Shown here: positions 766 to 61,332 of the stretch, piece by piece
Numbering within the stretch: the first letter of the stretch is position 1
Layout: each line of letters starts with the position of its first letter
Assembly: GCF_009730915.1 (NCBI RefSeq)
Contig: NC_052496.1
Span: 605,875 to 669,874, forward strand
Length of the DNA stretch: 64,000 bases
Source: Dioscorea cayenensis subsp. rotundata
Lineage: Eukaryota; Streptophyta; Magnoliopsida; Dioscoreales; Dioscoreaceae
Direction: 5' to 3'
Made by a program: the position numbers and the translations under genes
Notes under the pieces: model-generated
Database searches by the model: none
The model's input: only the letters and a program-made list of their open reading frames with translations
Told to the model about the DNA's origin: nothing

Positions 766-3700
766 GGGGCTCCGGATAACATTGTTCTAGGCTCTCATGT
801 CTGGGTTGAAGATCCATCATTGGCTTGGATTGATGGTGAGGTTTTCCGGATCAATGATCAGGAAGTCCATGTCCGTGCTACCAATGGGAAAACGGTATGT
901 GCTACTTATCAGCTTGTTCTTTTTCCTTCTACTTTTTTATCACCTCATTTAGGTCCATCAAAGTATAAAATAAAGCATACACTTTGATGATCCGTCACTG
1001 ACTGAATTTGAAAAATCTAACATTTCTTTAATGATCCTTGCATACAAATGTAGCTTCCTAATCATGTGGCAAAATGCTCCAGGTGGTTGCAAAATTATCA
1101 AAGGTCTTTCCAAAAGACACAGAAGCTCCACCTGGTGGAGTGGATGATATGACGAAATTGTCCTACTTGCATGAACCAGGAGTTTTACAAAATCTGGCAA
1201 CCAGATATGAGCTCAATGAAATCTATGTGAGACATTTCCTTTATTGCACCGCATTCTTGGATGAATGACTTGCAGTTATTTTTCATGACACTACAACATT
1301 TCTTTGAAATTTCAGACCTATACAGGAAATATATTGATCGCAATAAACCCGTTCCAAAGGCTGCCCCATTTATATGACACCCATATGATGGAACAATATA
1401 AAGGAGCAGGATTTGGGGAGCTGAGCCCTCATGTTTTTGCAGTTGCAGATGTGGCATACAGGTGATTTGTCTTTTTCTATTTTTTCTTTTTTCCTTTTCT
1501 TTTTCTTTTTTGTTTTTTTTTCTTTTTTCGTCTATCACTCAACATCTATTTATGTCAAGTTTTATTTCTTTTGATATTCATTCTTCCATAAGAAAATAGG
1601 GCAATGATCAATGAAGGCAAGAGCAATTCAATTTTAGTAAGTGGTGAAAGTGGTGCTGGTAAGACTGAAACAACAAAGATGCTCATGAGATATCTTGCAT
1701 ACTTGGGAGGACGGTCTGGAATAGAGGGAAGAACGGTTGAGCAGCAGGTTCTTGAGGTAAGTCAAATAACTTTTTGCTTGTCATTTTAGAGTTCCTGCCA
1801 TTTATATTCAACAATGTTCTATTATCTTATATGCATGGAGTGCCAAGGGTCTTAAAATTTCTTTTCTTGTCTTAAATTCAGTCTAATCCAGTTCTTGAAG
1901 CATTTGGGAACGCAAAAACTGTTCGTAACAACAACTCAAGGTAGGCATTTCTTTATGCAAAATCTGAAGCCTACCCAGCCTGCTATTTGTAGCGTCAGCT
2001 TTGTGTAATTTGTTATTGTCTTTTATGCTCCATTGTGTTTCATCATGCTAATCTATCTCAGTGCATCTTCTTCTATTTGTTCATGAAGTCGCTTTGGTAA
2101 GTTTGTTGAGATTCAATTTGACAAAAGTGGGAGGATTTCTGGTGCTGCCATACGAACCTATCTGCTAGAAAGGTCCCGTGTCTGCCAAATTAATGATCCT
2201 GAGAGAAACTACCATTGTTTTTATCTTCTTTGTGCGGCCCCTCCTGAGGTATGCATGTGTTGGTTTATGCCTTTCTCACACTTGTTCATGTTAGTTTTTT
2301 CCCCTCTTTTATGCAATGCTGACAAGATCATAGAAGGGCCTGCATGATGAAATCTTCACCTTTAATTTGCAGGATATTGAGAAGTATAAATTAGGGAATC
2401 CTAAATCCTTCCATTATCTTAATCAGTCAAATTGCTACGAATTGGATGATGTTAATGATTCTCATGAATATCTAGCAACCAGAAGGGCCATGGATATAGT
2501 TGGCATTAGTGAGCAGGAGCAGGTATGCACTTTTTACATATTTCAGGGTAAATGAAACGTTGTGGTAAATTGTTTATCAATTTTTTTTTCTATGAAAATA
2601 ATATTTGAATGCATCTCCAGGAGGCAATATTCAGGGTTGTGGCTGCTATTCTTCATATTGGGAATATTGACTTTGCAAAGGGGAAGGAGATAGATTCCTC
2701 GGTCATTAAGGATGAAAAGTCAAGATTCCATCTTAATATGACAGCTGAACTTTTGAAGTAAATCTATCTCTTTAATTTTTTATTGAACATATTGCAGCAT
2801 CTTCAGACCTGAATTACTTCTCTTCGTGATCGGCAGACTTATGTTTCATAAGCAATGCATGTATGTCTATCACAGGTGTGATGGTCAGGGTTTGGAAGAT
2901 GCACTGATTAAACGTGTTATGGTGACACCAGAAGAAGTTATTACCAGGACACTTGATCCTTCTTCTGCAATTGTCAGCAGGGATGGCCTTGCAAAGACAT
3001 TGTATTCTCGCCTATTTGATTGGTAATGACCTCCAATTTTGAGGGAAGTTTTTAAGGTTCTTGCATGCCCTTTTTATCTTTTAGTAAATGGAGTGATATT
3101 TTATTTAGTATTCTGCCTGCAGGCTGGTAAATAAGATCAATGTGTCGATTGGACAGGACCCAAACTCGAAGTCGCTGATTGGAGTACTTGATATATATGG
3201 CTTTGAAAGTTTCAAATGTAATAGGTATGAGTTGGCTGTGACAGTTTACATTATACCTAAATACTTTACAAATGTCATCGTGGCATAATTTTAGAATGCT
3301 CTACAAGGCTTATATGTATAGCAGCTATTGACTGAACAAAAAAGCTGCAAAAGTTTTTAGTAGTAATTATGTAGCCTTAATATTCTGAAATGATTAGATT
3401 TAGAAATTTTAAAGGTTGACCGGCTGGTAAAATACTGCATAAAGCATTGTAATGCCAGTGATATTTGACTTTTACATGATTCATGTTAAACAGCTTTGAA
3501 CAATTCTGCATCAACTTCACAAATGAAAAGCTTCAACAACATTTCAACCAGGTGAGGTGGATTTTATCAGGACAATCTTCAGTTTTGCTTTGGACCTTTG
3601 GTTATTCCTTAAACTAACATGTAAAAGTTTTCAGCATGTCTTCAAAATGGAGCAAGAGGAGTATACAAAGGAGGAGATTGATTGGAGCTATATTGAATTT

Positions 3701-16435: not shown

Positions 16436-19400
16436 TTAAGGTATCTTGAAAATCTGCTTCAATCTGACAACAAGCTTCCATTCTTCCATGGATAAATCAT
16501 CCTGCAAATCAAAGTCAGAAATTTAGAACAAATAATAGCATCATTTTGGGATGTGATGTTAATCAAAGCCCATTCATTCTACAGCAATCCAAAATGCTAT
16601 CCATGCAACCGTATGAAGGTTTAAAATTTTACCCTATAATCAGACTTCAAAATGTCAATTGATCTTCTAGAGATGTGGCTGACAAGCTCATCATCAATCT
16701 CAAAATGCCTGCCAAACATCTTTTGTTGTTCTTCAGGACTATTGCTAACAATCTGTACGCAGATAGAGTAGAACTTGCCATCAGGGGGGAAAAAATGATG
16801 TGTCATAAGAGGTAATAGAGATTTTTTTATTTAGAAAAAAAAAAATACCTTTATGGCTACCTTCTGCCCTTTTGTGGCCACATCAACCTGTTTGTGATTT
16901 ATCTCGATCGACGCTATCTTCCCGATGTCAATGAAATCCCTTGAAGGAACACAAATGGGGGTGCCCACCTACAATTGCAGTTAAATCAAAATCAGTGATC
17001 AAATAAGGCTGTGTGCATGGCCGACATTTTTACTTCCTCTGTACAGCTCTTAGAACTTAGAAGAAATAATACCTTCAAAATGCCTTCAAGGACATCAACA
17101 CCTAAAATAATAGGATCCTTTTTGTTGAAGATGCAGTCACGCATAATCTTAAGAACACATGGGAAGACTGCTTCTTCAGCGCTTTCTTTCTTCTTCTCTT
17201 CCCTCAAGTTATCAATGTAAGCCTTGAACTGGTCAAACAAGTGATAGATAATATCTGCCACAAAAATCTTCACACCAGTCTCCTCTGCCAGCTCCCGAGC
17301 ATCAGGCATCACCTTGACATCAAAAGCCAAGATGGTTGCAAATTCTTTTTTTCTCTCCAGCATAACACTAGCCTTCATCACATCCTTTTTGTGCACTGGA
17401 CCTATACTAAAATCACTAAATGGAATGTTCACAGCAGGACTCCTTAGAAACTCCGTGAGAGCTTCCAACGAACCTAGGGTAGAGGCTTGTACGAAAACAC
17501 CCTCCCCACTTTTGTCAATTCGACTCATAACTTTCCTCATGTCTTGCATTACAGATTCTTTGACATCTTCTACGTCATCATTTGGACCTACCACATAAAG
17601 AGCAGTTCCTGCAATTGCATGCTCGAGGCCCTGAAACAGGAGAAAATTATCATGACAAAGTTGTTTGACCATTATTCATGGATGTAAAACTTGACTGAAG
17701 ATGAAAGTTCACCTGTGCAGCGATTTTGACACCCTGTGCAGCTTTAAGCTCTTTGTGATGTATGTATTGTCCCTGAAGGAAATTTAAACAAAGATCATTA
17801 ACATGATAAATTGGAGAGAAAATAGTCTAAAATTTAAGAATAACCAGTAATTGCTTGCATAATACTGTAAAATGCTCCCATTAAAAAAAAAAAAACAAAA
17901 TTCAAAAACAGAACTCCTGATCCAAAAAAGAATCCCATTGAAATAGATTTGTTCTGCCAGAAATGGGAAGGGGTGGGGTTACAAACAAGATAAAATTAGT
18001 AAATCTCATCAGTTATCAGCGCATTGCTGACCTTGAATGAGCTTACACCCTTCCAAAACTGACCATATATGTTAAAATAGTCTCTTGTTGTATCAGGCCT
18101 CTACAGAATCAATATTAAATCCCTTTCAATGATTATTGTTGCCTTAAAAACATGGCGTACGATTGAAAAGAAAAATAATACTTGTTGGTTGCTAATCACC
18201 ATTTTGAGCTTGCATGAAACAAGAAGAACAGCTAATGGACAAAAGAAGTAAAGTTTCTCCCAATTGGATAACACAACCCATTCTAACCTGTACATATATA
18301 ACCAAATGATTTAATAATAACAGACCACTCACCTTAACACGGAGCTCCTTCATTGGTGCAGGTGTCAACAAAGTTCTGATATTGGTCACAATAGGGCCCT
18401 AAATTACAAATATCATATGTTAGAATACAAGTACATATGTAAACAGTATTCCTTTTGCAAGCCAAGTATGATTTCTGCACCTGCATGCCACAGACAACTA
18501 TCTGGTCCCCTTCATGAAGAACACCATTAACCAGCACGACATCAATGGTTGTTCCCAAACCTTCAATCACTTTAACCTCAAGTACTGTGCACTGAAAGAC
18601 ATTAAAAGATTATTAACCAATGAGAATCAGCGGACAGAGCTATATATATTATATAGATACGATCACCCCTATGACGAGCAACAAGAGGCAGAATTTATAC
18701 AGTAAAATGACCATAAAAATCAGGAAATATAAAGGTTTTTAATCATGATTTTAAGACTATCAAATTGCAATGTGAACTTATGGACGGGTCACTGCTTATC
18801 TTATATTGCACTAACAGAAAAACTAGATGAAACATCTATCAACATCACCTGCTGGAAATAAAGCAAGAACTAACCTGTACTTCATCAACATAGGTGAGCC
18901 TCTCTGCCATTGTCTTCTGAGACCACTGAACCAACAGTAATAGAAGATCCGGGATGCCTTCACCACTAGAACATCAAATAAAATGATAACTGAATTTTAG
19001 AAATTCAAGAGTCAATTCCAAAGCATCAATAACAGAGAAAATCATGTTTGATCCTACCTGATGGCACTTGTAGGAACAATGTTGAACGTCTCACCCATAT
19101 CTTTGTTTTTATAATATAGAGCCGTATTCAGGCCTTGCTCCTTTAACTGTGTTACAATCTGGATAACAAAAACCATAACAGTAAAGTTCCCATTAGCATT
19201 AAGATTTACATCCAGAAAGGAAAACCAAACTGTGCTAGAAGTACACACCTGGGTAAGTCTCATATTGAATTCATTTTGCACATCTTTTGACTGCTGTTTA
19301 ATAGATTTGATTATAGGTGCGTTTGGGGTGGCTTTCCACCCATAAAGTCGATCAACCTTGACAAAGAATATAAGAATCAGCAGAAGGGCACACCAATCAA

Positions 19401-21753
19401 GTGCCAGAAAACAAGGCAGGTATACAAGAGTAATGCACCAGCAATTGCTCACCTTATTCAAAGCAACAATGAATTCTGTGTTTCGACTTTTCAAAAGATT
19501 GAGAGATTCTATTGTTTGCTGCTCAAGCCCATGCATGATATCCACAACCAAGATTGCAATATCACACAAGCTTGAACCTCTGGAACGTAAGTTAGTGAAG
19601 GACTCATGACCAGGGGTATCAATGACAAGCAGCCCAGGAACCTTCAATGTTGCATCAGCTTTTAGCTCCTTGGTCCTCTCTCTTATATATTCAGTTGGAA
19701 AATATGTAGCTCCAATTTGCTGTGTAATACCACCAGCCTCTCCTTCTTGAACATTTGTCCGTCTGATGCAATCCAGAAGTTTAGTCTTTCCAGTGTCAAC
19801 ATGGCCAAGAATACAGCATATTGGTGATCTGAGGTCATTTCCACTCTTTTTCTCAGATGAAGCTGGCTCCTTCTTCCCCTTCACTTGCATAGTGCGTTCA
19901 GTTGCTCTATCAACCTCACTTCCATCCACATCTTCATTCTTGGAAGGTGCTCGGGAGGCAACAACCTTCTTGACAGCAGGCTTAGCAGGAGCTGAGTTCT
20001 TTGCCTGAGAATCATTGGTTGCACTGGATATAGATGCAACACGCTCAAGACTTTTCTTCGTGGTGACTGGAGCATCTTCTTCATCGTCCTTGTCTTCCTC
20101 AGCAAAAGGACTAGTAGCAGGCAGCTTCACAACAAGGTCATCCAAGCTCTTTGCATCCCATTCATCTTCATCCTCCTCCTCCTCCTCCTCCTCCTCCTCC
20201 TCCATAGGTTCACCCACCTCTTCCACAAGCTTGTCCTCAACTTTGTCCTCAGGTTCCTCAACTTGAGATTGAATCTCCTCCTCAATAACAGAATCATCCT
20301 CAGCCAGCTCAACATCAGGTTCAGAAGCCTCCTTTTGATTCTCCTCCACCTTGCCAGTGACTAAAGCCTTGGCTTGGTTGGCCTTTGACTTCTTAGTTTC
20401 ATACTTTGGTCTTTTTTTGGTCTCCCCAACAACTTCACCAAGTGGAACATCCCGTTGAGCAAGAAACTGATTCCTCATTGCTTCCAACCTCCTCCTTTCC
20501 TCCTTTTGCTTCCCTGTCAAGAGCTTCCCCTCCTGCCTCTTCTTCTCCCTCAGTTCCTTCTCCTTCTCCTTCTTCCTCCGTTTGGCCTCCTCCTTCAGCC
20601 TCTCTTCCTCCTCCAACCGTTTCCTCTCTTCCTCCTCCTTCCTAAGCCTTTCTTCTTCTTCCTTCTTCTGCCTCTCCTCAGCCTCCTTCCTCCTTGCCAA
20701 CGCCTCCTGCATCTCCCTCACATGTTTAGGTAGCTTTTTCGCAGGACCCTTCCCCTTCACCTCCTCTTCCTTCTCTTCCTTGGCTTCAGCTACAGCCGGC
20801 GCAGCCTTCTTATCATCCTTCTTTTTCTTCTTTTTCTTCTTAGACGCAGCGGTCCCGACTCCGTCCACTTCCTGATCCTTCTCCTCGGCCTCAACCTCAC
20901 CTTGCTCCGGTGGAGCAGAAACAGACTCCTCCACGGCCACCACTGGAGGAGCCAATGGCTGCGGTGTTGGAGCCGGACCTTCCCCAAGCTCAGCAAGTAG
21001 CTTATCCAAGTCCTCCTCCTCTTGGGCAGTCCTTCCACCCTTCTTCTTTTTCTTTTTCTGCTGCTTCTTCGAGCCAGCCTCATCCACTCCACCTCCTAGC
21101 TGGTCCTTACTCTCGTCAACGTCATCCACAATCGGAGCAGGAACCGGAACCGGAGCCGGAGCAGGATCGCTCGGTACCGGTCCCTCACCAAGCTCAGCAA
21201 GGAGCTTATCTAAATCCTCCTCCTCCTGCGCACTCCTCCCACCCTTCTGCTTTTTCTTCTTCTTCTTCTTCGATGCACCATCCTCGCCACCTCCAAACCT
21301 ATCAACCTCTCCATCTGGATCCCTAATCTCATCACCCTCATTCTCCACATGATTCCCAATGTCAAACCTCGAGACCACCCTCGTCTCCTCCACCTCATCG
21401 TTGCCCTCGTCCTCCGCAATGAGATTAAAAGAACTAAAAGCACTAGCACTAGAACTAGAACCACCAACCTTCTTCGACTTGGAAGACTTCTTTTTACCAG
21501 AGAACACGACGTTGATCGGCTCATCATCGTCATCCTCCTTCTCCTTCTCCTTCTCCTTCTCATTCTCATCAGCTTCTTCATCCTCCACTACCTTGTTCCG
21601 CTGCGCTTTTCCTCCACCTCCACCACCCTTCTTGTTCTTCTTCCCAGCCACCCCACGGTTCTCCTTCTCCGGCCCCTCCGACGCCTTCTCCGAAGGATCA
21701 TCCGGGAAAGAGTACTCATCATCGTCAATGGCTACAGCCTTCTTCCGCCCCAT
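16436..21753 (-). CDS. Eukaryotic translation initiation factor 5B (IF-2 family GTPase)
   Basis: Cytosolic GTPase that joins the 60S subunit to the 48S complex at the end of initiation. Eleven exons (minus): 19453-21753, 19249-19356, 19058-19158, 18875-18965, 18481-18591, 18333-18398, 17713-17772, 17073-17630, 16849-16968, 16633-16752, 16436-16501; all phases agree and give 1,233 residues, in the range of plant eIF5B. The first 767 codons form one exon. Residues 1-640 are a low-complexity, highly charged region with Lys blocks, Glu runs and a repeated [18 protein letters not shown] module. The G domain follows: G1 GHVDTGKT near 650, G2 [10 protein letters not shown]3 DTPGH near 712, G4 NKVD near 766, G5 SAISG. 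Domains II-IV complete the C-terminus. The start is the first ATG of the frame. A (CT)n tract lies just upstream. Confidence 0.96.
20170..20202. repeat. CTC trinucleotide run encoding poly-Glu in eIF5B
   Basis: About ten CTC/TCC units in the + strand read as an uninterrupted Glu run on the minus strand, in the charged N-terminal region. The Glu stretch is typical of this protein, but its exact length probably varies between alleles. Confidence 0.8.
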
Positions 21754-21907
21754 CGATCCAAGCTCCCAAAATTCCGATCTAGAGAGATCGAAGGAGACGC
21801 GAGCACGATGAAAACCCTAGAAACGATGAGATTGGCTCCGATTCGAGGCGGCTACACTGGCCTAATTCGATCAAAACTCCCAACTTTTTATGTTTTCTTT
21901 TGTTTGT

Positions 21908-36727: not shown

Positions 36728-36954
36728 TAAAAATCACAATTATATAAACCAAATATCTTTAAGGGAAAATTACTGTTTACCCCTCGATAATTTCAAAACT
36801 TCCCAAACAGCCCCTGTGAGTTTTGCATACCTCAGACAACCCTTCCTTTATTGTTTCACTTCCTTTTTACCCCCTGCATTATGAAATTCCATCATTGCCC
36901 TTAAACCTTTTTGCATACATTTTTTTCATTCTTTTTTGCATTCCTTTTTGTATG

Positions 36955-37200
36955 TACTCATTTCTTAAACAGAGAGCTCATTTTTTTAAAGCAGAGAGTT
37001 CATTTCTTAAACGAGAGTTCATTTCTTAAACGAAACCCTCATTTCTTAAACAAAAAAACTCATTTCTTAAAGCGAAACCCTCATTTCTTAAACAAAAAAA
37101 CTCATTTCTTAAGCAGAAAAACTCATTTTTTTAAAGCGTAAAACCTCATTTTTTTAAACATAAAACTCATTTTTTTAAACAAAAAAACATTGATATTTAA
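36955..37200. repeat. Left array of ~20-bp degenerate repeats in the Mutator-like element
   Basis: About a dozen units of the pattern CTCATTTCTTAAAC[G/A]... or CTCATTTTTTTAAA..., 17-24 bases each. The same unit forms the right array at 38725-38965, so subterminal arrays bracket the insert. Confidence 0.75.
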
Positions 37201-37271
37201 ACAGAAAAACCAATATTTACGTGGCAAATTAATCCTGCATATAAAACCAATTAATCTTGGCCACTCATACA

Positions 37272-37945
37272 TATTTAAATAGAAACAACGATATTTAAGC
37301 ACTTTTTAAAGCGTAAGCGCAATATATTAAAGCGAAACATCGATAGTTAAACAAAGACAAACAAGCGTATAAGCAGAGAACTCATTTCTTAAGCAGAGAG
37401 CTTATTTTTTTAAACAAAGACCTCATTTTTTTAAAGCGAAACCTCATTGAGTAGGGACATTGAGTATCTCATCGTCGTCGATCTCGCGCGAACGCTGAGT
37501 CTCGAGCTCCAGATCTGGCGAGCGATCTCGAAGGTGACATGCTCGTGTGGGGTCTTAAAGGAGAAATCTTTATCGGCGTTGGCGATCCGGTTGGCGACGT
37601 TCCTCGGCGGTCGGAGTGGTGAGGTCTTCGGTGGCGACGTCGGATAAGACAGGGTCGAACTTGAATCGGAACCATTCTCGATCGCGGAGACCGCAACATG
37701 GATAGCAATAGGGTTAGGGTTAGGGATCATTCCGGGGTTTGGATCCATGGTGCCTAAGTCGGTGACGGGAACGGAGGGAGGAAGTGGAGCCGATGAGGGT
37801 TCGATCTCGCCGTCTTCGTCTTCGTCTTCATCGTCTTCCCTGTCGTCGACCTCATCTCTTTCATCTTCTTCGTCGTCGACCCTCGGGGAAGACCGCGATG
37901 CTCCTCGTCGTCGAGCGAAGGCATCGAAAGGTTGCACTCAGTACG
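37272..37945. repeat. Internal tandem unit 1 of the Mutator-like element
   Basis: First of two tandem copies with a period of 674 bases. It begins TATTTAAATAGAAACAACG, contains AT-rich spacer with CGATAGTTAAAC, then a GC-rich gene-like part (37450-37935). Confidence 0.8.
37431..37937 (-). pseudogene. Captured gene fragment in unit 1 (function not recognised)
   Basis: A GC-rich open frame of 168 codons on the minus strand, in contrast to its AT-rich surroundings. The predicted product has an acidic stretch (DDEEDERDEVDDRED), a Pro-rich piece and PNPGMIPNPNPIAI, then NVANRIANADKDFSF. The frame ends in element repeats, so it is at most a fragment. I do not recognise the donor gene. The second copy at 38124-38600 has frame-changing differences. 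Confidence 0.4.
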
Positions 37946-38594
37946 TATTTAAATAGAAACAACGATATTTAAGCACTTTTTTTAAACATAAACGCAATAT
38001 ATTAAAGCGAAAACATCGATAGTTAAACAAAGACAAACAAGCGTATAAAGCAGAGAACTCATTTCTTAAACGGAGAGCTTATTTTTTTAAACGAGACCTC
38101 GTTGAGTAGGGACATTGAGTATCTCATCGTCGGGCCGATCTCGGCGAACGCTGAGTCTCGAGCTCCGAGATCCGGCGAGCGATCTCGAAGGTGGCCTCGC
38201 TCGTGTGGGGTCTTAAAGGAGAAATCTTTATCGGCGTTGGCGATCCGGTTGGCGACGTTCCTCGGCGGTCGGAGTGGTGAGGTCTTCGGTGGCGACGCTC
38301 GGATAAGACGAGTCGAACTTGAACGGAACCATTCTCGATCGCGGAGACCGCAACATGGATAGCAATAGGGTTAGGGTTAGGAATCATTCCGGGGTTTGGA
38401 TCCATGGTGCCTAAGTCGGTGACAGGAACGGAGGGAGGAAGTGGCGCCGATGAGCGTTCGATCTCGCCGTCTTCGTCTTCGTCTCCATCGTCTTCCCTGT
38501 CGTCGACCTCATCTCTTTCATCTTCTTCGTCGTCGACCTCGGGGAAGACCGCATGCTCCCTCGTCGTCGAGCGAAGGCATCGAAAGGTTGCGAC
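37946..38594. repeat. Internal tandem unit 2 of the Mutator-like element
   Basis: Second copy of the 674-base unit, slightly shorter, with substitutions and small indels. Its gene-like part (38124-38600) is frameshifted against unit 1 between the PNPNP block and the following region. Confidence 0.8.
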
Positions 38595-38724
38595 CTTTTT
38601 TCCGTGAACTTGAAATCCCATTTTTTTCATGCAACGTGATCGTGATTGTGAGTCGCGTGCTTTGTCTCACCGGCCCCAAACTACTGATAAAGCAGATTTT
38701 GGGGGTGATAAATACACCACAAAA

Positions 38725-38965
38725 AACTCATTTCTTAAACAGAGACCTCATTTTTTTAAACAAAAAGCTCATTTTTTTAAACGAAAAACTCATTTTTTTA
38801 AAGCAGAGACCTCATTTTTTTAAACGAAACCTCATTTCTTAAAGCAGAAAACTCATTCCTTAAACGGAAAACTCAATTTTTTTAAACAAAAAAACTCATT
38901 TTTTTAAATAGAAAACTCATTTTTTTAAACAGAAACTCATTTTTTTAAAGAGAACCCTCATACTC
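38725..38965. repeat. Right array of ~20-bp degenerate repeats in the Mutator-like element
   Basis: Roughly eleven units such as CTCATTTTTTTAAACGAAAA with variable A/G-rich linkers, in the same orientation as the left array. Confidence 0.75.
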
Positions 38966-39251
38966 TCATATTTTTAAATAGAAGCTTCAGTTTTCAAATA
39001 GAAAGCTCATTGCACTCAAGGGCATTATAGTCAAACCCCTGTCACACTTGCCACAACTTCCCACGCAAGGGACAATTTCAGTCCAAAAAAAATTCCAAAT
39101 TAACTCTATAAATCACTATTAGATGTTTGGGGGGTTTAAAAAATCATTGTATTCAAAAGGAAGGGGTTTTTGAGGAGTGCAAAACTAACGGGGTATTTTT
39201 GGCAATATTGCAAACTTAAAAGGTGTTTTTGACAATTTCCACTATCTTTAA

Positions 39252-42200: not shown

Positions 42201-44150
42201 TTAATAGTAAGAAAATTCAAAACAATATTAAAACTCTAATATATTTTGATAATGTGAGTAGTTTATTTGTTTGTTTTTTTTTTTTTTTTTTTATAATTTT
42301 ACGTTTTTACATTAGCAAAACTTGATGTTATAGTATTGAAATTACCACCAACATAGTCTAACAACAAAAAAATAATTCTAATTTTCATATTTCAAGTTTC
42401 ATATCTCTTTAAACTTTTTATGATATTTTTAAAAATTAAAAAATAAAATTCAACACTATAAAAAATTAGTCCAAGTAATAAAACTTTAAAATTACTCTAA
42501 TAAGTGATTCGAATTTGAATCTTTGTAAATGTAGAAAATTTGTGTTGAAACATTGGATTAGTTAAATACCTAAACTCTCTCCATAGGCTCTAACGCCATT
42601 GATGGTCAAAAGATTAGAAAAATATATATATATATATATATATATATACAAAAGTTGTTATCATGGAGTTTTTACACAGAGAAGAGGACAAACATTGGAG
42701 TTATACCATGAATGATAATAAAAATTATATAAACTTTGTACATGATTCAAATGATACAAAAATAAAAGTCATGATCATAAAAGTGCTCTATCACAAGATG
42801 GACCCCTGGTTTTTTTTTTGGTGACCTTCACTTTTCCAAAGAATTCACTCGGTTGCTTGTGTTCCATGTCTAGCTGTCTGATTGTCTCTTTTGAAACAGT
42901 GGAACATTCTATCAAGTATCAAATGGTCAATGAAGCCTTAAAATGGAGGTTATATAATGTTTTTAGTTTCTCATATATAAGTAACATGCAAACAGTCAGA
43001 TCAGTTAGCTACACTGATTGACCTTAAACATTGTTTCTATGTATGAATAGTCAACAAACTACTCATCTTGTCAGGCATGACACATGGACCACTTTTATGA
43101 TATGTTTGGCAACAAGCTTTGGTCTTATAAGTTGACTTTCTATTGCCTTCTTACTATGCTATTATTATTATTATTAGTCATCAGAGTTGTGTTTGATTTG
43201 GTTACCATGTATCTGAAAATATGGTTCTTAATGACTACTAAAAGTTGGTAAATTTTTCACATCTTCAAGTTTGGTAGATTAGGCTAATATATTTGTTTAT
43301 GACTTAGTTATATCATACATGAACAATTATATAATAGGCTTTATGTTTATTTGACTGAATTTGGACTTCCATATATATATATATATATATTTTTTATATT
43401 AAAATATTTTTTAACAAAATAAATAAAAATAAATAAATATATATATGTATATATATTCGATCACATTTATATAATCTTTCACAGCTGTATAAATAAATTA
43501 ATCATCACTGAACAATATTAGAACTAGTAATAATATATTCAATATAAATATTAAATAAATACAGTAAATTTAATAAAAAAAATATTTTATATATATCTAA
43601 CAAAATATTGAATAATTTTTTTTTAATAATATAAATAAATTATCATACACATTTTTATTATCACGTCTCAATCATGCATCAGAAGAAAAATCTCGACCCC
43701 TAAGAACGAGAGTCAATTTCATATACAATACAGTGATTGACAAACATTTACAAAAACTACACCGGAATCAAAATATGAATACTCAAAGACGGAGGAGTCC
43801 ACCTGCGTGTGGCTGAGCTGGCATCCAATCAAAACAACAAACAAGTAACAAACGCGCATACTCTCGCGCTCACGCTGTGCCACGCATACTTCATACTCGC
43901 TCGCGCGCGCGGGAGCGGGCGCGGGCGCGCGGAAACTAACAGCCTGATTCCAAATCTAAATTGATTCCAAAACCATTCAGGGCACACCAATCCAAAGTTC
44001 TAAACCAAACCAATCCAATCCAATCACCGTCCAGTCCACTCAGTCACAAAACCCCCCACGTTTTGCTCCCCTTCCTCAACCGCGTTATCCGCGGTTCTTA
44101 GACTACCAGTCATTCTCTCCTCTCTCCTTCCTTCTTCTCCCTCCTCCCTC
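39252..44150. other. Long AT-rich intergenic region without a recognised gene
   Basis: Nearly 5 kb between the Mutator-like element and the ALP1-like gene. It is rich in TA microsatellites (around 40490-40620, 42620-42650 and 43370-43460) and poly-A/T. T-rich DNA at 41900-42085 ending in GTGATTTATCCA may be another retroposon 3' remnant. From 43800 to 43935 the DNA turns GC-rich with CG/GC runs, towards the promoter of the next gene. No coding exon could be supported. Confidence 0.55.
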
Positions 44151-44196
44151 GAACCTTCTCATTCTCCGCGTTCACACGTTCCTCTCCTCCAAAACA

Positions 44197-44206
44197 TATA
44201 TATAAA
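44197..44206 (+). promoter_or_regulatory. TATA box of the ALP1-like gene
   Basis: TATATATAAA in a C/T-rich context, 86 bases before the ATG. A start of transcription about 30 bases downstream would give a leader of about 60 bases. Confidence 0.5.
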
Positions 44207-44291
44207 TTCCATCCTCCAATTCTCTTTCGTTCACATTGACTCTTACCAACTCTTTTCCTTTGCTTTTCAACCAAGCTTTCTATCAAAACTT

Positions 44292-45815
44292 ATGAAAAAC
44301 CCCATCACCACCGCCGCCGCCGCCACCACCGCCACCACCGTCGCCGCCGCCGACGACGATTTCTCCTTCTATTACTCTTACTTTCAGGACGCTATTGCCT
44401 CTTTCCCTGCTTCTCCCCCTTCCGACATGCCCAAGAAGAAGCTTGACTCTGCTAATCCTTCCAAGAAGCGTTCCATCGCTAACATCCTCACTTCTCTTGC
44501 CGCTCTTGATGATCAGGATGCTTCTGAGCGTCGCCATGCTGATGATGCTTCTCTTCATGATCTCTCGCTTCTCCAGGCTAATCATCAGTCTCGTCTCAAC
44601 GCTACTCTTGATTATTTTGACCGTGTTGAGGAGCATTTTGATGAGGCCGAGCAATCGGACACTCTTCGTAGTAAGCGCGCTCGTCTTGCTGCTTCTGCTG
44701 CTGCTGCCACGGTTGCTGATGGCGCTGCCTCTGGTGCTCAGCCGCAGCACCATCAGCGAAGGCTTTGGGTCAAGGACCGGTCGACGGCGTGGTGGGATCG
44801 CTGTAATCACCCTGATTTCCCCGAGGCTGAGTTCCGTCGTGCGTTTCGGATGTCTAGGGCTACGTTTGATATGATCTGTGATGAGCTTGGGTCTGCCGTT
44901 GCCAAAGAGGATACCATGCTTCGTGCTGCGATTCCTGTTCGTCAGCGCGTCGCTGTGTGCATCTGGCGGCTTGCTACCGGTGAGCCTCTCCGTCTCGTTT
45001 CCAAGAGGTTCGGGCTTGGGATATCCACTTGCCATAAGCTTGTTCTTGAGGTTTGCTTAGCTATCAAGACCGTTCTCATGCCTAAATTCCTCCAATGGCC
45101 TGATGAGCAGAGCTGCTCCTCCATCAAATCGAGATTTGAGAACATCTCTAGGATCCCCAATGTCGTGGGATCCATGTACACGACCCACATCCCCATCATC
45201 GCTCCAAAGGTCAGCGTCGCCGCCTATTTCAACCGTCGTCACACCGAACGCAACCAGAAGACCTCGTATTCGATCACTGTCCAGGGAGTCGTTGATCCTG
45301 ATGGGGTGTTCACCGACGTGTGCATTGGGTGGCCTGGCTCGATGCCCGACGACAAGGTGCTCGAGAAATCGGCGTTGTTCCAGCGTGCCGAGTCCGGGAT
45401 GCTGAAGAACGTCTGGGTCGTCGGCAGCTCTGGTTACCCACTGATGGACTGGGTGCTCGTCCCATACACACACCAGAACCTAACTTGGACGCAACACACA
45501 TTCAATCAGAAGATCGGGGAGGTGCAGAGGGTGGGAAAGGAGGCCTTTGCGAGGCTGAAAGGCAGGTGGACGTGCTTGCAAAAGAGGACAGAAGTCAAGC
45601 TACAAGATTTACCTGTGGTGCTCGGAGCTTGCTGCGTCCTTCACAACATTTGCGAGATTCGGAAGGAGGAGATGGAGCCTGAACTCAAGTTTGAGCTGGT
45701 GGATGATGAGATGGTGCCTGAGAACAGTCTCCGATCGGTGAGTTCAATGCGAGCAAGAGATAACATTGCACATAATTTGTTGCATCGTGACTTTGCGGGA
45801 ACTAATTTCCTTTGA
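44292..45815 (+). CDS. ALP1-like protein, domesticated PIF/Harbinger transposase
   Basis: Single-exon gene, 507 residues. The N-terminal third is Ala/Asp-rich and variable, including an Ala/Thr stretch encoded by GCC/ACC triplets. From about residue 155 it matches the plant HARBI1/ALP1 group: WWDRC, EFRRAFRMSRATFDMIC, IPVRQRVAVCIWRLATGEPLR, RFGLGISTCHKLVLEVC. The DDE nuclease fold follows. The site that carries the first catalytic Asp in active Harbinger transposases (DGTHI) reads GSMYTTHI here (293-300), so Asp is absent. The second block, GWPGSMPDDKVL (346-357), keeps Asp; the third has KEAFARLKGRW with Glu417. An Arabidopsis homologue has, as I recall, the same substitution, suggesting an old domesticated lineage. 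ALP1 relatives act in chromatin complexes; a role for this copy is inferred only. Confidence 0.92.
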   Translation: MKNPITTAAAATTATTVAAADDDFSFYYSYFQDAIASFPASPPSDMPKKKLDSANPSKKRSIANILTSLAALDDQDASERRHADDASLHDLSLLQANHQSRLNATLDYFDRVEEHFDEAEQSDTLRSKRARLAASAAAATVADGAASGAQPQHHQRRLWVKDRSTAWWDRCNHPDFPEAEFRRAFRMSRATFDMICDELGSAVAKEDTMLRAAIPVRQRVAVCIWRLATGEPLRLVSKRFGLGISTCHKLVLEVCLAIKTVLMPKFLQWPDEQSCSSIKSRFENISRIPNVVGSMYTTHIPIIAPKVSVAAYFNRRHTERNQKTSYSITVQGVVDPDGVFTDVCIGWPGSMPDDKVLEKSALFQRAESGMLKNVWVVGSSGYPLMDWVLVPYTHQNLTWTQHTFNQKIGEVQRVGKEAFARLKGRWTCLQKRTEVKLQDLPVVLGACCVLHNICEIRKEEMEPELKFELVDDEMVPENSLRSVSSMRARDNIAHNLLHRDFAGTNFL

Positions 45816-58817: not shown

Positions 58818-61332
58818 ATGTCGACGGTGTACACCTTGGAGCCGCCGACGAAGGGGAAGGTGGTGCTCAAGACGACGATGGGGCCTGTCGACATCGAGCT
58901 TTGGCCCAAAGAAGCTCCCAAAGCCGTCCGCAACTTCGTCCAGCTCTGCCTCGAGGGCTACTACGACCGCACCATCTTCCATCGCGTCATCAAGTCGTTC
59001 CTCATCCAGGGCGGTGATCCCACCGGCTCCGGCACCGGTAACCAATCCTCCTTCCATGTCTTGTGGTTGTTGTTGGCCGGAGCATTGATGTCTGCTAGGG
59101 TTTGTGTTCAAGGTTGAGACTTTTGATTGAATGTAATTGGTTATAATATTGATTGTAGGTGGAGAGAGTATATACGGCGGTGCATTTGCTGATGAATTCC
59201 ATACGCGATTGAGATTCAATCATAGAGGCTTGGTTGCTTGTGCTAATGCTGGTTCGCCGCACTCGAACGGAAGCCAGTTCTTTATATCTTTGGATCGGTG
59301 TGATTGGCTTGATAAGAAGAACACCATATTTGGCAAGGTGACACTTTTGCTGGTTTTGGTATTGGTGACATGAATAAGCTGTTTGAAGCTTGCTTGCTTT
59401 GACTTTTGTAGGTCACTGGGGATTCCATATATAACCTTCTGAGGCTGGGCGAGGTGGAGGTGGATAAGGATGATCGGCCATTGGATCCCCCAATTATACT
59501 CTCTGTTGAGGTAGCCTCCTGTTTTTATTGCATCTTCACTTAGGGCATCGGGTTCAATTGCCTACAAAATTTTAGATGCTTAGTCGGAGGAGAATGTGAT
59601 TAACTCCATTGAAAACAATGCAAAATTCAGAGGCAGCCTTGTGTAACAACCTCAGAACCTGCACTGTGGTCCTTAGGCAATGAATTATATTAGGAAATAG
59701 GATTAGCAATGTGTATTTGGCCTTTCTGTCCTAGAGAGTCATAAAGTTGTTTGCTCTTCACTTTGAAGCACGAGGTATGAGAATATGATTTTTGAGTAAA
59801 AAGTGATTTATGCTTGGAAAAAAGAAGTGTATCTTTGATCATTCCAGCCACTCTACATGATAAGACCTAGACACCTATGATGCCTATAATCATGTGTTAG
59901 TATTCAATCATCTTGTAAATGGTTATCTAAATTATATGTTTTGCTCAGGTATTGTGGAACCCTTTTGATGATATTATCCCAAGGAAAGTCTCTGAGAAGC
60001 CTCTCTCACATATAAAAACTGATGATGGGGGAAAAGCTTTGAGGAAGAAGGCTGAAAAGTGAGTGTATTTTGCTTCAAGTGCATTTTTCTTTCTTCTTAT
60101 TCATATAGCATTGTTGCACGCAACCTTAACATAGCTAGCTTTTTTATTTAGGAAGCTAAATGTGCTATCTTTTGGAGAAGAAGTAGAAGAGGAAGAAAAA
60201 GAGGTGGAGGCAGCTGGCAAGGAGAAGATTAAAAGTATTCATGATGTCTTAGATGATCCCCATTTTGTCAAGGAAGAAGTGAAGAGAGATGAACCAGTTC
60301 TAGTTACTTACCTAACTCACCATTAACATTTTATTTGAGTTCACATGAACCTTATATGTTATTGTTGAAACTTGATACCTTTCTGATGCATGCGTTTAAG
60401 CCTTACACTAGCTCACATTATGAGAGTTTTGGAACATTGACAACAGAAACCTTTCTGATGCATGTGTTTAAGCCTTACACTAGTTCACATTATGAGAGTT
60501 TTGGAACATTGACAACAGGGCTATCATTGGTATTCATTTCACATTCAAAATAGGAGAGGTCCTCATATATAAACCTATTATCTTGTCAGAGGACAGAAAG
60601 TTCACCAATTCCATGCCCCTCCTATGATATCTTATGATATGCCTTTTTTGACAAGCATTCACCGTCTATGATCTCATGAGGGTTGATATCACATTTCAAG
60701 AGGACAGAGAGGCGATTCACTATCCACTTTCCTGTTTGAACTCATCCTTTAAATTGTCATATATTCCACATTCTCCTTACGCATGAACATACCCTATAAA
60801 TGGTCTTTATGGTGATAACAGACATTTGTTTTTATTATCAGGTTAAGAGACTTCCTATCGGACTGGCGCTTGTCTAAAATTTGTTCTGTCAAAATTACCT
60901 ACTACAAACTACTTGCATTTTGTTTGCTATTCTGTCTGGTTGTAGAGCTTTTATTCGTACACGTTTAGGTATGGGATGTTTCTTTATTAATAAGAAAATA
61001 ATGGACTGTTAAGTTTTAAGGATTTCATGATCATCTAGTCCCATTTTAGACCACTTTCTGTGCAGGAGGTTGAATGTAAAGTTTGGCTTGCATAGAAATG
61101 TTTTTAAATTCTGCACATTATTATACTGTCAAAGCTGTGTTTGATTTATATTTTGAGCCAGCACATAATTCAATACGTATGTGGTGAAAATTCATTTGTC
61201 ATACAGAATCCTGCAGAAGTTGAAAGGAAAAAGGATATTCAATTATCTGTCAGGGAGGCCTTGAACTCAAGGAAAGGTGACTCGAATAAAGCTGAAGGAA
61301 TTAATGCTCCTGATACTTATGATTATAGTGGC

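What the first reader, a model, noticed from the sequence alone, without database searches (positions are those of the whole stretch)
36754..39251. Composite Mutator-like element: exact 9-bp TSD, subterminal repeat arrays and a doubled gene-like insert
The boundaries are exact: TATCTTTAA on both sides and matched inverted ends. The interior order is TIR, ~20-bp array, 674-base unit, second unit, ~20-bp array, TIR. The units carry a GC-rich segment with a 168-codon frame in unit 1, unlike any nearby DNA. A Pack-MULE whose captured piece was later duplicated in tandem, with arrays that may replace the subterminal region, is unusual. The idea that the arrays and the insert move as one unit is inference.
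Basis: partly seen in the sequence, partly recalled or inferred. Interest (0 to 1): 0.7.

Follow-up and report, generated by a model that had tools for sequence, protein, structure and literature searches.

The report
Jumping gene carrying doubled stolen gene-piece
This is one copy of a large plant jumping-DNA family that picked up the front half of a host transcription-factor gene, lost part of it, doubled the remainder and then spread the doubled version around the genome; it is a clear and unusually complete case of a known kind.

Summary
36763-39242 is a 2,480-bp non-autonomous Mutator-like (Pack-MULE-type) element with an exact 9-bp target-site duplication. In its own assembly (584 Mb, plant) I read 40 other copies, with 1 to 4 inner units; 23 of 33 readable elements have an exact 9-bp duplication, against 10 of 1056 mismatched flank pairs.

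The GC-rich insert comes, on the minus strand, from the 5' half of a GeBP-like transcription-factor gene whose apparent donor is intact in the same genome (L053). Seven elements read across still carry the insert without the 257-bp deletion that removed most of the DNA-binding domain. All 40 unit junctions examined share one breakpoint, so one tandem duplication preceded dispersal.

A cargo-less relative (L074) has the same ends, an exact duplication, and three tandem units of about 500 bp, each an array of ~20-bp repeats plus AT-rich spacer. The arrays therefore belong to the base element, in one orientation, and the gene piece landed inside one. I found no convincing selection on the captured frame; the window's 168-codon frame is copy-specific.

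Not found: the transposase source. Not answered: the empty-site search. The arrays resemble VANDAL/VANC target arrays in form only. Interest moderate.

The parts
36754..36762 (.). left copy of the 9-bp target-site duplication TATCTTTAA
36763..36955 (+). left terminal region; outer 21 bp GGGAAAATTACTGTTTACCCC; inner part 75% complementary to the right end
   Evidence: the 198-bp arm is 88-100% identical in the elements where it was found; outer word 1492 matches genome-wide
36956..37186 (+). left array of ~20-bp direct repeats (CATTTCTTAAACAGAAAACT type)
   Evidence: also in the cargo-less relative L074
37187..37369 (+). base-element spacer; from about 37268 on it belongs to unit 1
   Evidence: the same spacer in L074
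37268..37941 (.). tandem unit 1 (674 bp: spacer, short array, deleted gene piece)
37449..37935 (-). captured GeBP-like gene piece, unit 1; start codon at 37924-37922 on the minus strand; 257-bp deletion joint near 37593-37605
37942..38591 (.). tandem unit 2; joint with unit 1 near 37935-37945 (GGTTGCACTCAGTACGTATTT)
   Evidence: same breakpoint in 40 of 40 junctions
38103..38591 (-). captured GeBP-like gene piece, unit 2; start codon at 38580-38578 on the minus strand; deletion joint near 38251-38263
38592..38719 (-). remnant of the captured 5' leader and upstream sequence of the donor gene, kept only behind the last unit
38720..39010 (+). right array of ~20-bp direct repeats, same orientation as the left one
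39020..39242 (+). right terminal region
   Evidence: outer 23-bp family word 807 matches genome-wide at <=2 mismatches
39243..39251 (.). right copy of the 9-bp target-site duplication

Best explanation
A non-autonomous Mutator-like element moved in trans by a transposase encoded elsewhere (inferred). Its base form is an AT-rich element whose interior is a tandem array of ~500-bp units, each a run of ~20-bp direct repeats plus a spacer (shown in L074). Once, a stretch of a GeBP-like transcription-factor gene, from upstream of the start codon through about codon 242 including the DNA-binding domain, was copied into an array of such an element (shown by comparison; the copying route, gap filling or template switching, is inferred). 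The piece then lost leader sequence and, in one lineage, 257 bp of the binding domain between two copies of a short word (up to 7 bp, AACGTCG). A 674-bp stretch of spacer plus deleted gene piece was then duplicated in tandem, once, where the two parents share CAC. The composite spread with 9-bp target duplications into AT-rich sites, and the number of units went on changing (1 to 4), by unequal exchange (inferred). The captured frame does nothing detectable now.
For: Both ends recur with different 9-bp duplications: 23 of 33 exact and 28 of 33 with at most one mismatch, against 10 and 50 of 1056 cross pairs. Unit junctions alike in 40 of 40. Apparent donor L053 with a 440-aa open frame, without significant match to the element arms and with array-motif counts like other GeBP loci. 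Seven elements read across without the deletion; the 22 deleted units tested group with full copies L062 and L069 at 98/96, the other five full copies outside. Cargo-less relative L074 with the same ends and an exact duplication. Genome words 1492, 807, 337 and 347 matches against 0 in each control. MULE transposase domains are plentiful: 150 listed.
Against: No transposase domain was found near these ends: none of the listed transposase hits lies within 30 kb of the listed exact left ends on C1-C9 (both lists are capped). No empty site could be tested. 5 of 33 elements lack a recognisable duplication, and of the full copies only L062 and L065 have an exact one. The deleted units alone form a branch at only 57/88. 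Only one cargo-less element was read. Part of the divergence between copies may be assembly error.
Confidence: 0.9

Rival explanations
1. The captured GeBP frame is (or was) used: full copies make a truncated transcription factor with the DNA-binding domain, acting on the host or on the element.
For: 3 of the 7 full copies read across (L062, L063, L064) keep the frame open over about 240 codons; their domains score 94-101 bits, like the donor's 97. Pairwise dN/dS among these three is 0.27-0.41, and 0.20-0.44 against the donor.
Against: Changes private to one copy show no convincing synonymous excess (L062 0 of 2, L063 6 of 12, L064 10 of 18 synonymous; expected 0.314; p 1.0, 0.14, 0.029 without correction for eight rows). 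4 of the 7 are broken. The abundant deleted form lacks most of the domain and looks near neutral (0.83 and 1.22, frame-shifted controls 1.00, 1.01, 0.82, 1.38). Copies were found by domain score, which favours intact ones.
Confidence: 0.06
2. The arrays and units are maintained for a role in the element's own activity: binding sites for a transposase or a VANC-like anti-silencing protein, as in VANDAL elements.
For: Same-orientation motifs at high density in noncoding DNA, present with and without cargo, with imperfect end repeats; the same description as VANC targets (PMC5735166 and PMC10398659, passages).
Against: No binding protein, autonomous partner, methylation or expression data. Tandem arrays inside transposons also arise by unequal exchange alone.
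Confidence: 0.15
3. The doubled units arose separately in each copy, or through assembly collapse and expansion.
For: Unit number varies (10, 23, 7 and 1 of 41 elements with 1, 2, 3 and 4 units), and needs at least 13 changes on a weak tree; two-unit elements show slight homogenisation.
Against: One breakpoint in 40 of 40 junctions; the two units of an element differ almost as much as units of different elements (0.072 against 0.075).
Confidence: 0.04

Closest known systems
Pack-MULEs (plants; rice, maize, tomato)
   Same: Non-autonomous ends with 9-bp duplications around a host gene piece; multicopy with distinct duplications; GC-rich, 5' gene sequence (PMC8277862 and PMC3310237, passages; the preference for 5' ends is recalled).
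   Different: The cargo sits in a higher-order tandem array of the base element, and most copies read carry it two to four times.
Tomato PM-ZIBP family, Pack-MULE with tandem TIRs (PMC3310237, passages)
   Same: A multicopy Pack-MULE family in which the form with duplicated parts outnumbers the simple one (13 against 1 there).
   Different: There the TIRs are duplicated; here the spacer plus captured gene piece.
VANDAL elements and VANC target arrays (PMC5735166, PMC10398659, passages)
   Same: Short motifs in tandem, same orientation, high density, noncoding; poor end repeats; 9-bp duplication (PMC6446971, passages).
   Different: Another motif; no coding genes in the copies read; no test of binding or anti-silencing.
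Tetris foldback transposon of Drosophila virilis (PMC4079207, title and start of abstract in a listing)
   Same: A DNA transposon linked with tandem-repeat (satellite) arrays.
   Different: Animal foldback element; gene capture not looked up.

Membership tests
Mutator-like element (MULE) | 9-bp (9-11 bp) target-site duplication | tested here: met
   exact in 23 of 33 readable elements against 10 of 1056 cross pairs
Mutator-like element (MULE) | terminal inverted repeats | tested here: met
   imperfect, 75% over 59 nt; shared by the copies
Mutator-like element (MULE) | mobilised by a MULE transposase with matching ends | tested here: inconclusive
   150 MULE domains listed, none near listed ends; lists capped, larger end pairs not readable
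Pack-MULE | host gene sequence between the ends, with a parental copy elsewhere in the genome | tested here: met
   L053, 94% and 95% identical to unit L042, 89-93% to the window units; no element arms found in L053
Pack-MULE | moved as a unit (copies with different duplications) | tested here: met
   23 exact duplications, 21 different words
VANDAL | VANA/VANB/VANC-type coding genes | not tested
   the composite copies read are 1.7-3.2 kb and hold no such frame that I recognised; no VANDAL protein was used as query
VANC target array | same-orientation short motifs in tandem in noncoding DNA | tested here: met
   1101 forward, 41 reverse motifs
VANC target array | bound by a VANC protein and demethylated | not testable with these tools
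   needs ChIP/DAP and methylome data
GeBP-like transcription factor (the cargo as a gene) | GeBP-like DNA-binding domain (PF04504) above the curated cut-off | tested here: not met
   window unit 1 frame and 16 of 16 family frames match only the end of the domain, below cut-off; the window's unit-2 frame does not match. The full copies and the donor are above it

The most novel reading that the evidence does not exclude
The ~20-bp arrays are a sequence-specific platform on which a DNA-binding protein of the element's own system assembles, as VANC does on VANDAL arrays, arisen independently in another plant lineage; capture of a transcription factor's binding domain into such an array (seen undeleted in seven elements, open in three) could be one way by which such self-targeting proteins are born.
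Probability: 0.07. Interest if true: 0.8.

Novelty: new variant of a known kind. Interest (0 to 1): 0.45.

Why it matters
One genome preserves the steps side by side: intact donor gene, full capture, internal deletion, single tandem duplication, dispersal, and later change of unit number. Short shared words at the deletion and duplication joints show how a captured gene piece erodes and multiplies inside a transposon. The contrast between broken and still-open full copies lets one ask when captured transcription-factor domains die. The same-orientation arrays, present with and without cargo, make a VANC-like anti-silencing hypothesis testable outside Arabidopsis.

Tried and rejected
Rejected: a functional 168-codon gene (the frame is a copy-specific fusion and the units evolve near neutrality). 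Rejected: independent duplications in each copy (one breakpoint in 40 of 40 junctions). Rejected: two ancestral unit types, first and last (the unit tree mixes them). Rejected: arrays as inverted subterminal repeats.

Led nowhere: nearness of transposase matches to ends; tRNA and Rfam scans of the window (none); solved-structure search with the window frame (five matches, E 0.38 or worse); selection on the full copies (not convincing); other copies in the window (none at E 0.001); PF03108 and empty-site searches (not completed). One transposase domain lies 4.3 kb from two base-spacer words (G000:C2:21767079-21772077); by a rough hand estimate about 0.3 such pairs are expected by chance.

Full report
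OBSERVATION. TATCTTTAA flanks 36763-39242 on both sides. The ends are inverted but imperfect (75% over 59 nt). Arrays of ~20-21 bp lie at 36956-37186 and 38719-38961. Two copies of a unit start 674 bp apart at the left edge and 655-658 bp apart in the GC-rich part, with GC of 0.47-0.61 in the GC-rich parts against 0.25-0.29 in the adjoining flanks. The 168-codon frame is on the minus strand.

COPIES. The window lies in a 584-Mb, 2249-contig assembly; searching it with the element gave 71 matching pieces from 40 scored of 3139 candidates. I fetched 39 loci, which hold 40 elements; with the window's that is 41: 10 with one unit, 23 with two, 7 with three, 1 with four (L012 was printed there as three because one unit is split by an insertion, and is counted as two from then on). 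Of the 41, 33 had both ends readable at the fixed position; 23 have an exact 9-bp duplication, 5 one mismatch, 5 more than one. Pairing left and right flanks of different elements gives 10 exact and 50 with at most one mismatch of 1056. The 23 words are 21 different ones, AT-rich, beginning with T in 20 and ending with A in 20. These are the best-scoring copies, not a random sample.

GENOME-WIDE COUNTS. The outer 21 bp of the left end match 1492 times at <=2 mismatches, the outer 23 bp of the right end 807 times, a 24-bp word of the gene piece 337 times, and a 27-bp word of the base spacer (below) 347 times; the reversed patterns match 0 times in each case. Pairing the listed places on C1-C7 gave 28 end pairs under 12 kb: one of 1731 bp, one of 2063, 20 of 2379-2488, four of 3048-3125, one of 5249 and one of 9567; the lists are capped. 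Of 99 listed exact left ends on C1-C8, 33 have the exact gene word and 12 the exact base-spacer word within 3.5 kb inward, none both, 54 neither; on the outer side 0 and 0. Among the elements read and the pairs listed, the two-unit form is the commonest.

THE CARGO. The window's unit-1 frame gave a weak match to the end of the GeBP-like DNA-binding domain (PF04504, E 0.026); its unit-2 frame gave none. Sixteen family frames chosen from the 90 all match it, best E 0.0013, below the curated cut-off. PF04504 has 19 matches in the genome, and I read all 19 places. L053 (G000:C7:354500-356800) has a 440-aa open frame; it matches the deleted unit L042 at 94.3% over 350 bp and 95.5% over 154 bp, and the window's units at 89-93%. 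It has no significant match to the element arms (best E 0.19), and 4 and 6 loose array motifs on its strands, like other GeBP loci (0-6). It is the apparent donor. Eight of the 19 places are element-borne (L062-L069).

FULL CAPTURES. L062-L067 and L069 carry arrays and element-end sequence around a gene piece without the deletion, from upstream of the start codon through about codon 242; L068 is cut off within the piece. L065 has its own 34-bp loss at the start of the domain. Exact duplications: L062 and L065; 2 mismatches at best in L064 and L069; 3 and 4 in L066 and L067; no right end found in L063 and L068. L063-L065 keep most of the 5' leader; L062, L066, L067 and L069 have lost some 60 bp of it. 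The deleted units lack 257 bp against the donor and five of the seven full copies (223 in L065, 266 in L067), at a joint where L069 has AACGTCG on both sides and others shorter matches; 257 is not a multiple of three, which explains the two frames. A further leader deletion splits the deleted elements into long and short forms. In a tree rooted on the donor, the 22 deleted units tested (of 81) group with the full copies L062 and L069 (98/96) and the other five full copies lie outside; the deleted units alone form one side of a branch at 57/88.

THE TANDEM DUPLICATION. All 40 unit junctions have the same breakpoint, where the leader (GGTTGCAC) meets the spacer (CACTCGTACATATTT), sharing CAC. 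Units of one element differ about as much (mean 0.072, 50 pairs) as units of different elements (0.075, 3190 pairs); within the 23 two-unit elements the two units are slightly closer than shuffled pairs (0.066 against 0.076; 0 of 10,000 shuffles as low). So duplication came before dispersal, with some later homogenisation. On a weakly supported tree of the ends the unit number changes at least 13 times, which fits unequal exchange (inferred).

THE BASE ELEMENT. The end pair of 2063 bp was fetched (L074). It has both ends, an exact duplication (TATTTTAAA), no match to the gene piece, and three tandem units of about 545, 535 and 492 bp, with 10, 9 and 7 array motifs and a final short array; each unit has an AT-rich spacer that begins like the spacer of the window element. 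The spacer word recurs in the genome, 13 of 17 listed neighbour distances under 2 kb being 356-565 bp. The arrays are thus part of the base element, itself a higher-order tandem repeat; the gene piece sits inside an array. This is why both arrays of the composite run the same way: 1101 forward against 41 reverse motifs over 40 elements. Only this one cargo-less element was read in full.

SELECTION AND DECAY. In the deleted units, observed over expected nonsynonymous/synonymous ratios are 0.83 (N-terminal part; the same stretch in shifted frames 1.00 and 1.01) and 1.22 (domain end; shifted 0.82 and 1.38), near neutral; 39 of 81 units keep the N-terminal frame open. The family majority reads the N-terminal part and the domain end in different frames, so the window's fused 168-codon frame is its own. 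Among full copies, L062-L064 are open and pairwise dN/dS is 0.27-0.41, but changes private to single copies give no convincing synonymous excess (L062 0 of 2, L063 6 of 12, L064 10 of 18; expected 0.314).

MECHANISM. Shown: repeated insertion with 9-bp duplications, a captured gene piece with a donor, one deletion class, one tandem duplication, dispersal of the composite. Inferred: mobilisation in trans by a MULE transposase (150 domains listed; no linkage to these ends found in the capped lists), capture by gap filling or template switching (models discussed in PMC8277862, passages read), and unequal exchange between units.

COMPARISON. It meets the structural features of a Pack-MULE. It differs from the tomato PM-ZIBP family with tandem TIRs (PMC3310237, passages) in what is duplicated. 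Its arrays resemble the same-orientation motif arrays of VANDAL elements (PMC5735166 and PMC10398659, passages), but no binding protein, coding gene or anti-silencing was tested. Verdict: a new variant of a known kind, of moderate interest.

Noticed in passing
units in window and L009-L047: One-base indels among copies are concentrated at CAG/CTG, CCG/CGG and CG sites (0.019, 0.023, 0.015 per site per unit, against 0.006 elsewhere) and unevenly spread over copies; array words AAACAG appear as AAAGCAG, AAACGAG or AAAGCG. This may be assembly error at methylated cytosines rather than mutation.
   Followed up: partly
L025 (G000:C9:1945815-1952899): Two elements of the family lie in opposite orientation, left ends facing each other some 240 bp apart.
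   Followed up: no
G000:C2:12552964-12562530 and G000:C2:22875794-22881042: Two end pairs far longer than the rest (9567 and 5249 bp); the second holds two exact gene words in its first half.
   Followed up: no
window 44004-45815 +: A 603-aa open frame with a DDE superfamily endonuclease domain (PF13359, E 5e-36), a transposase-derived gene or transposon.
   Followed up: no
window 16992-21816 -: Exons of an eIF5B-like translation factor gene (IF-2 and GTP_EFTU domains); the name eIF5B is recalled.
   Followed up: no
window 60377-60518: A 72-bp sequence twice in tandem, 97% matching.
   Followed up: no
units in window and L009-L047: CpG observed/expected is 1.36 in the gene piece against 0.53 in the window, high for a transposon; CHG sites show the highest transition rate (0.078 against 0.039 at CG).
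   Followed up: partly
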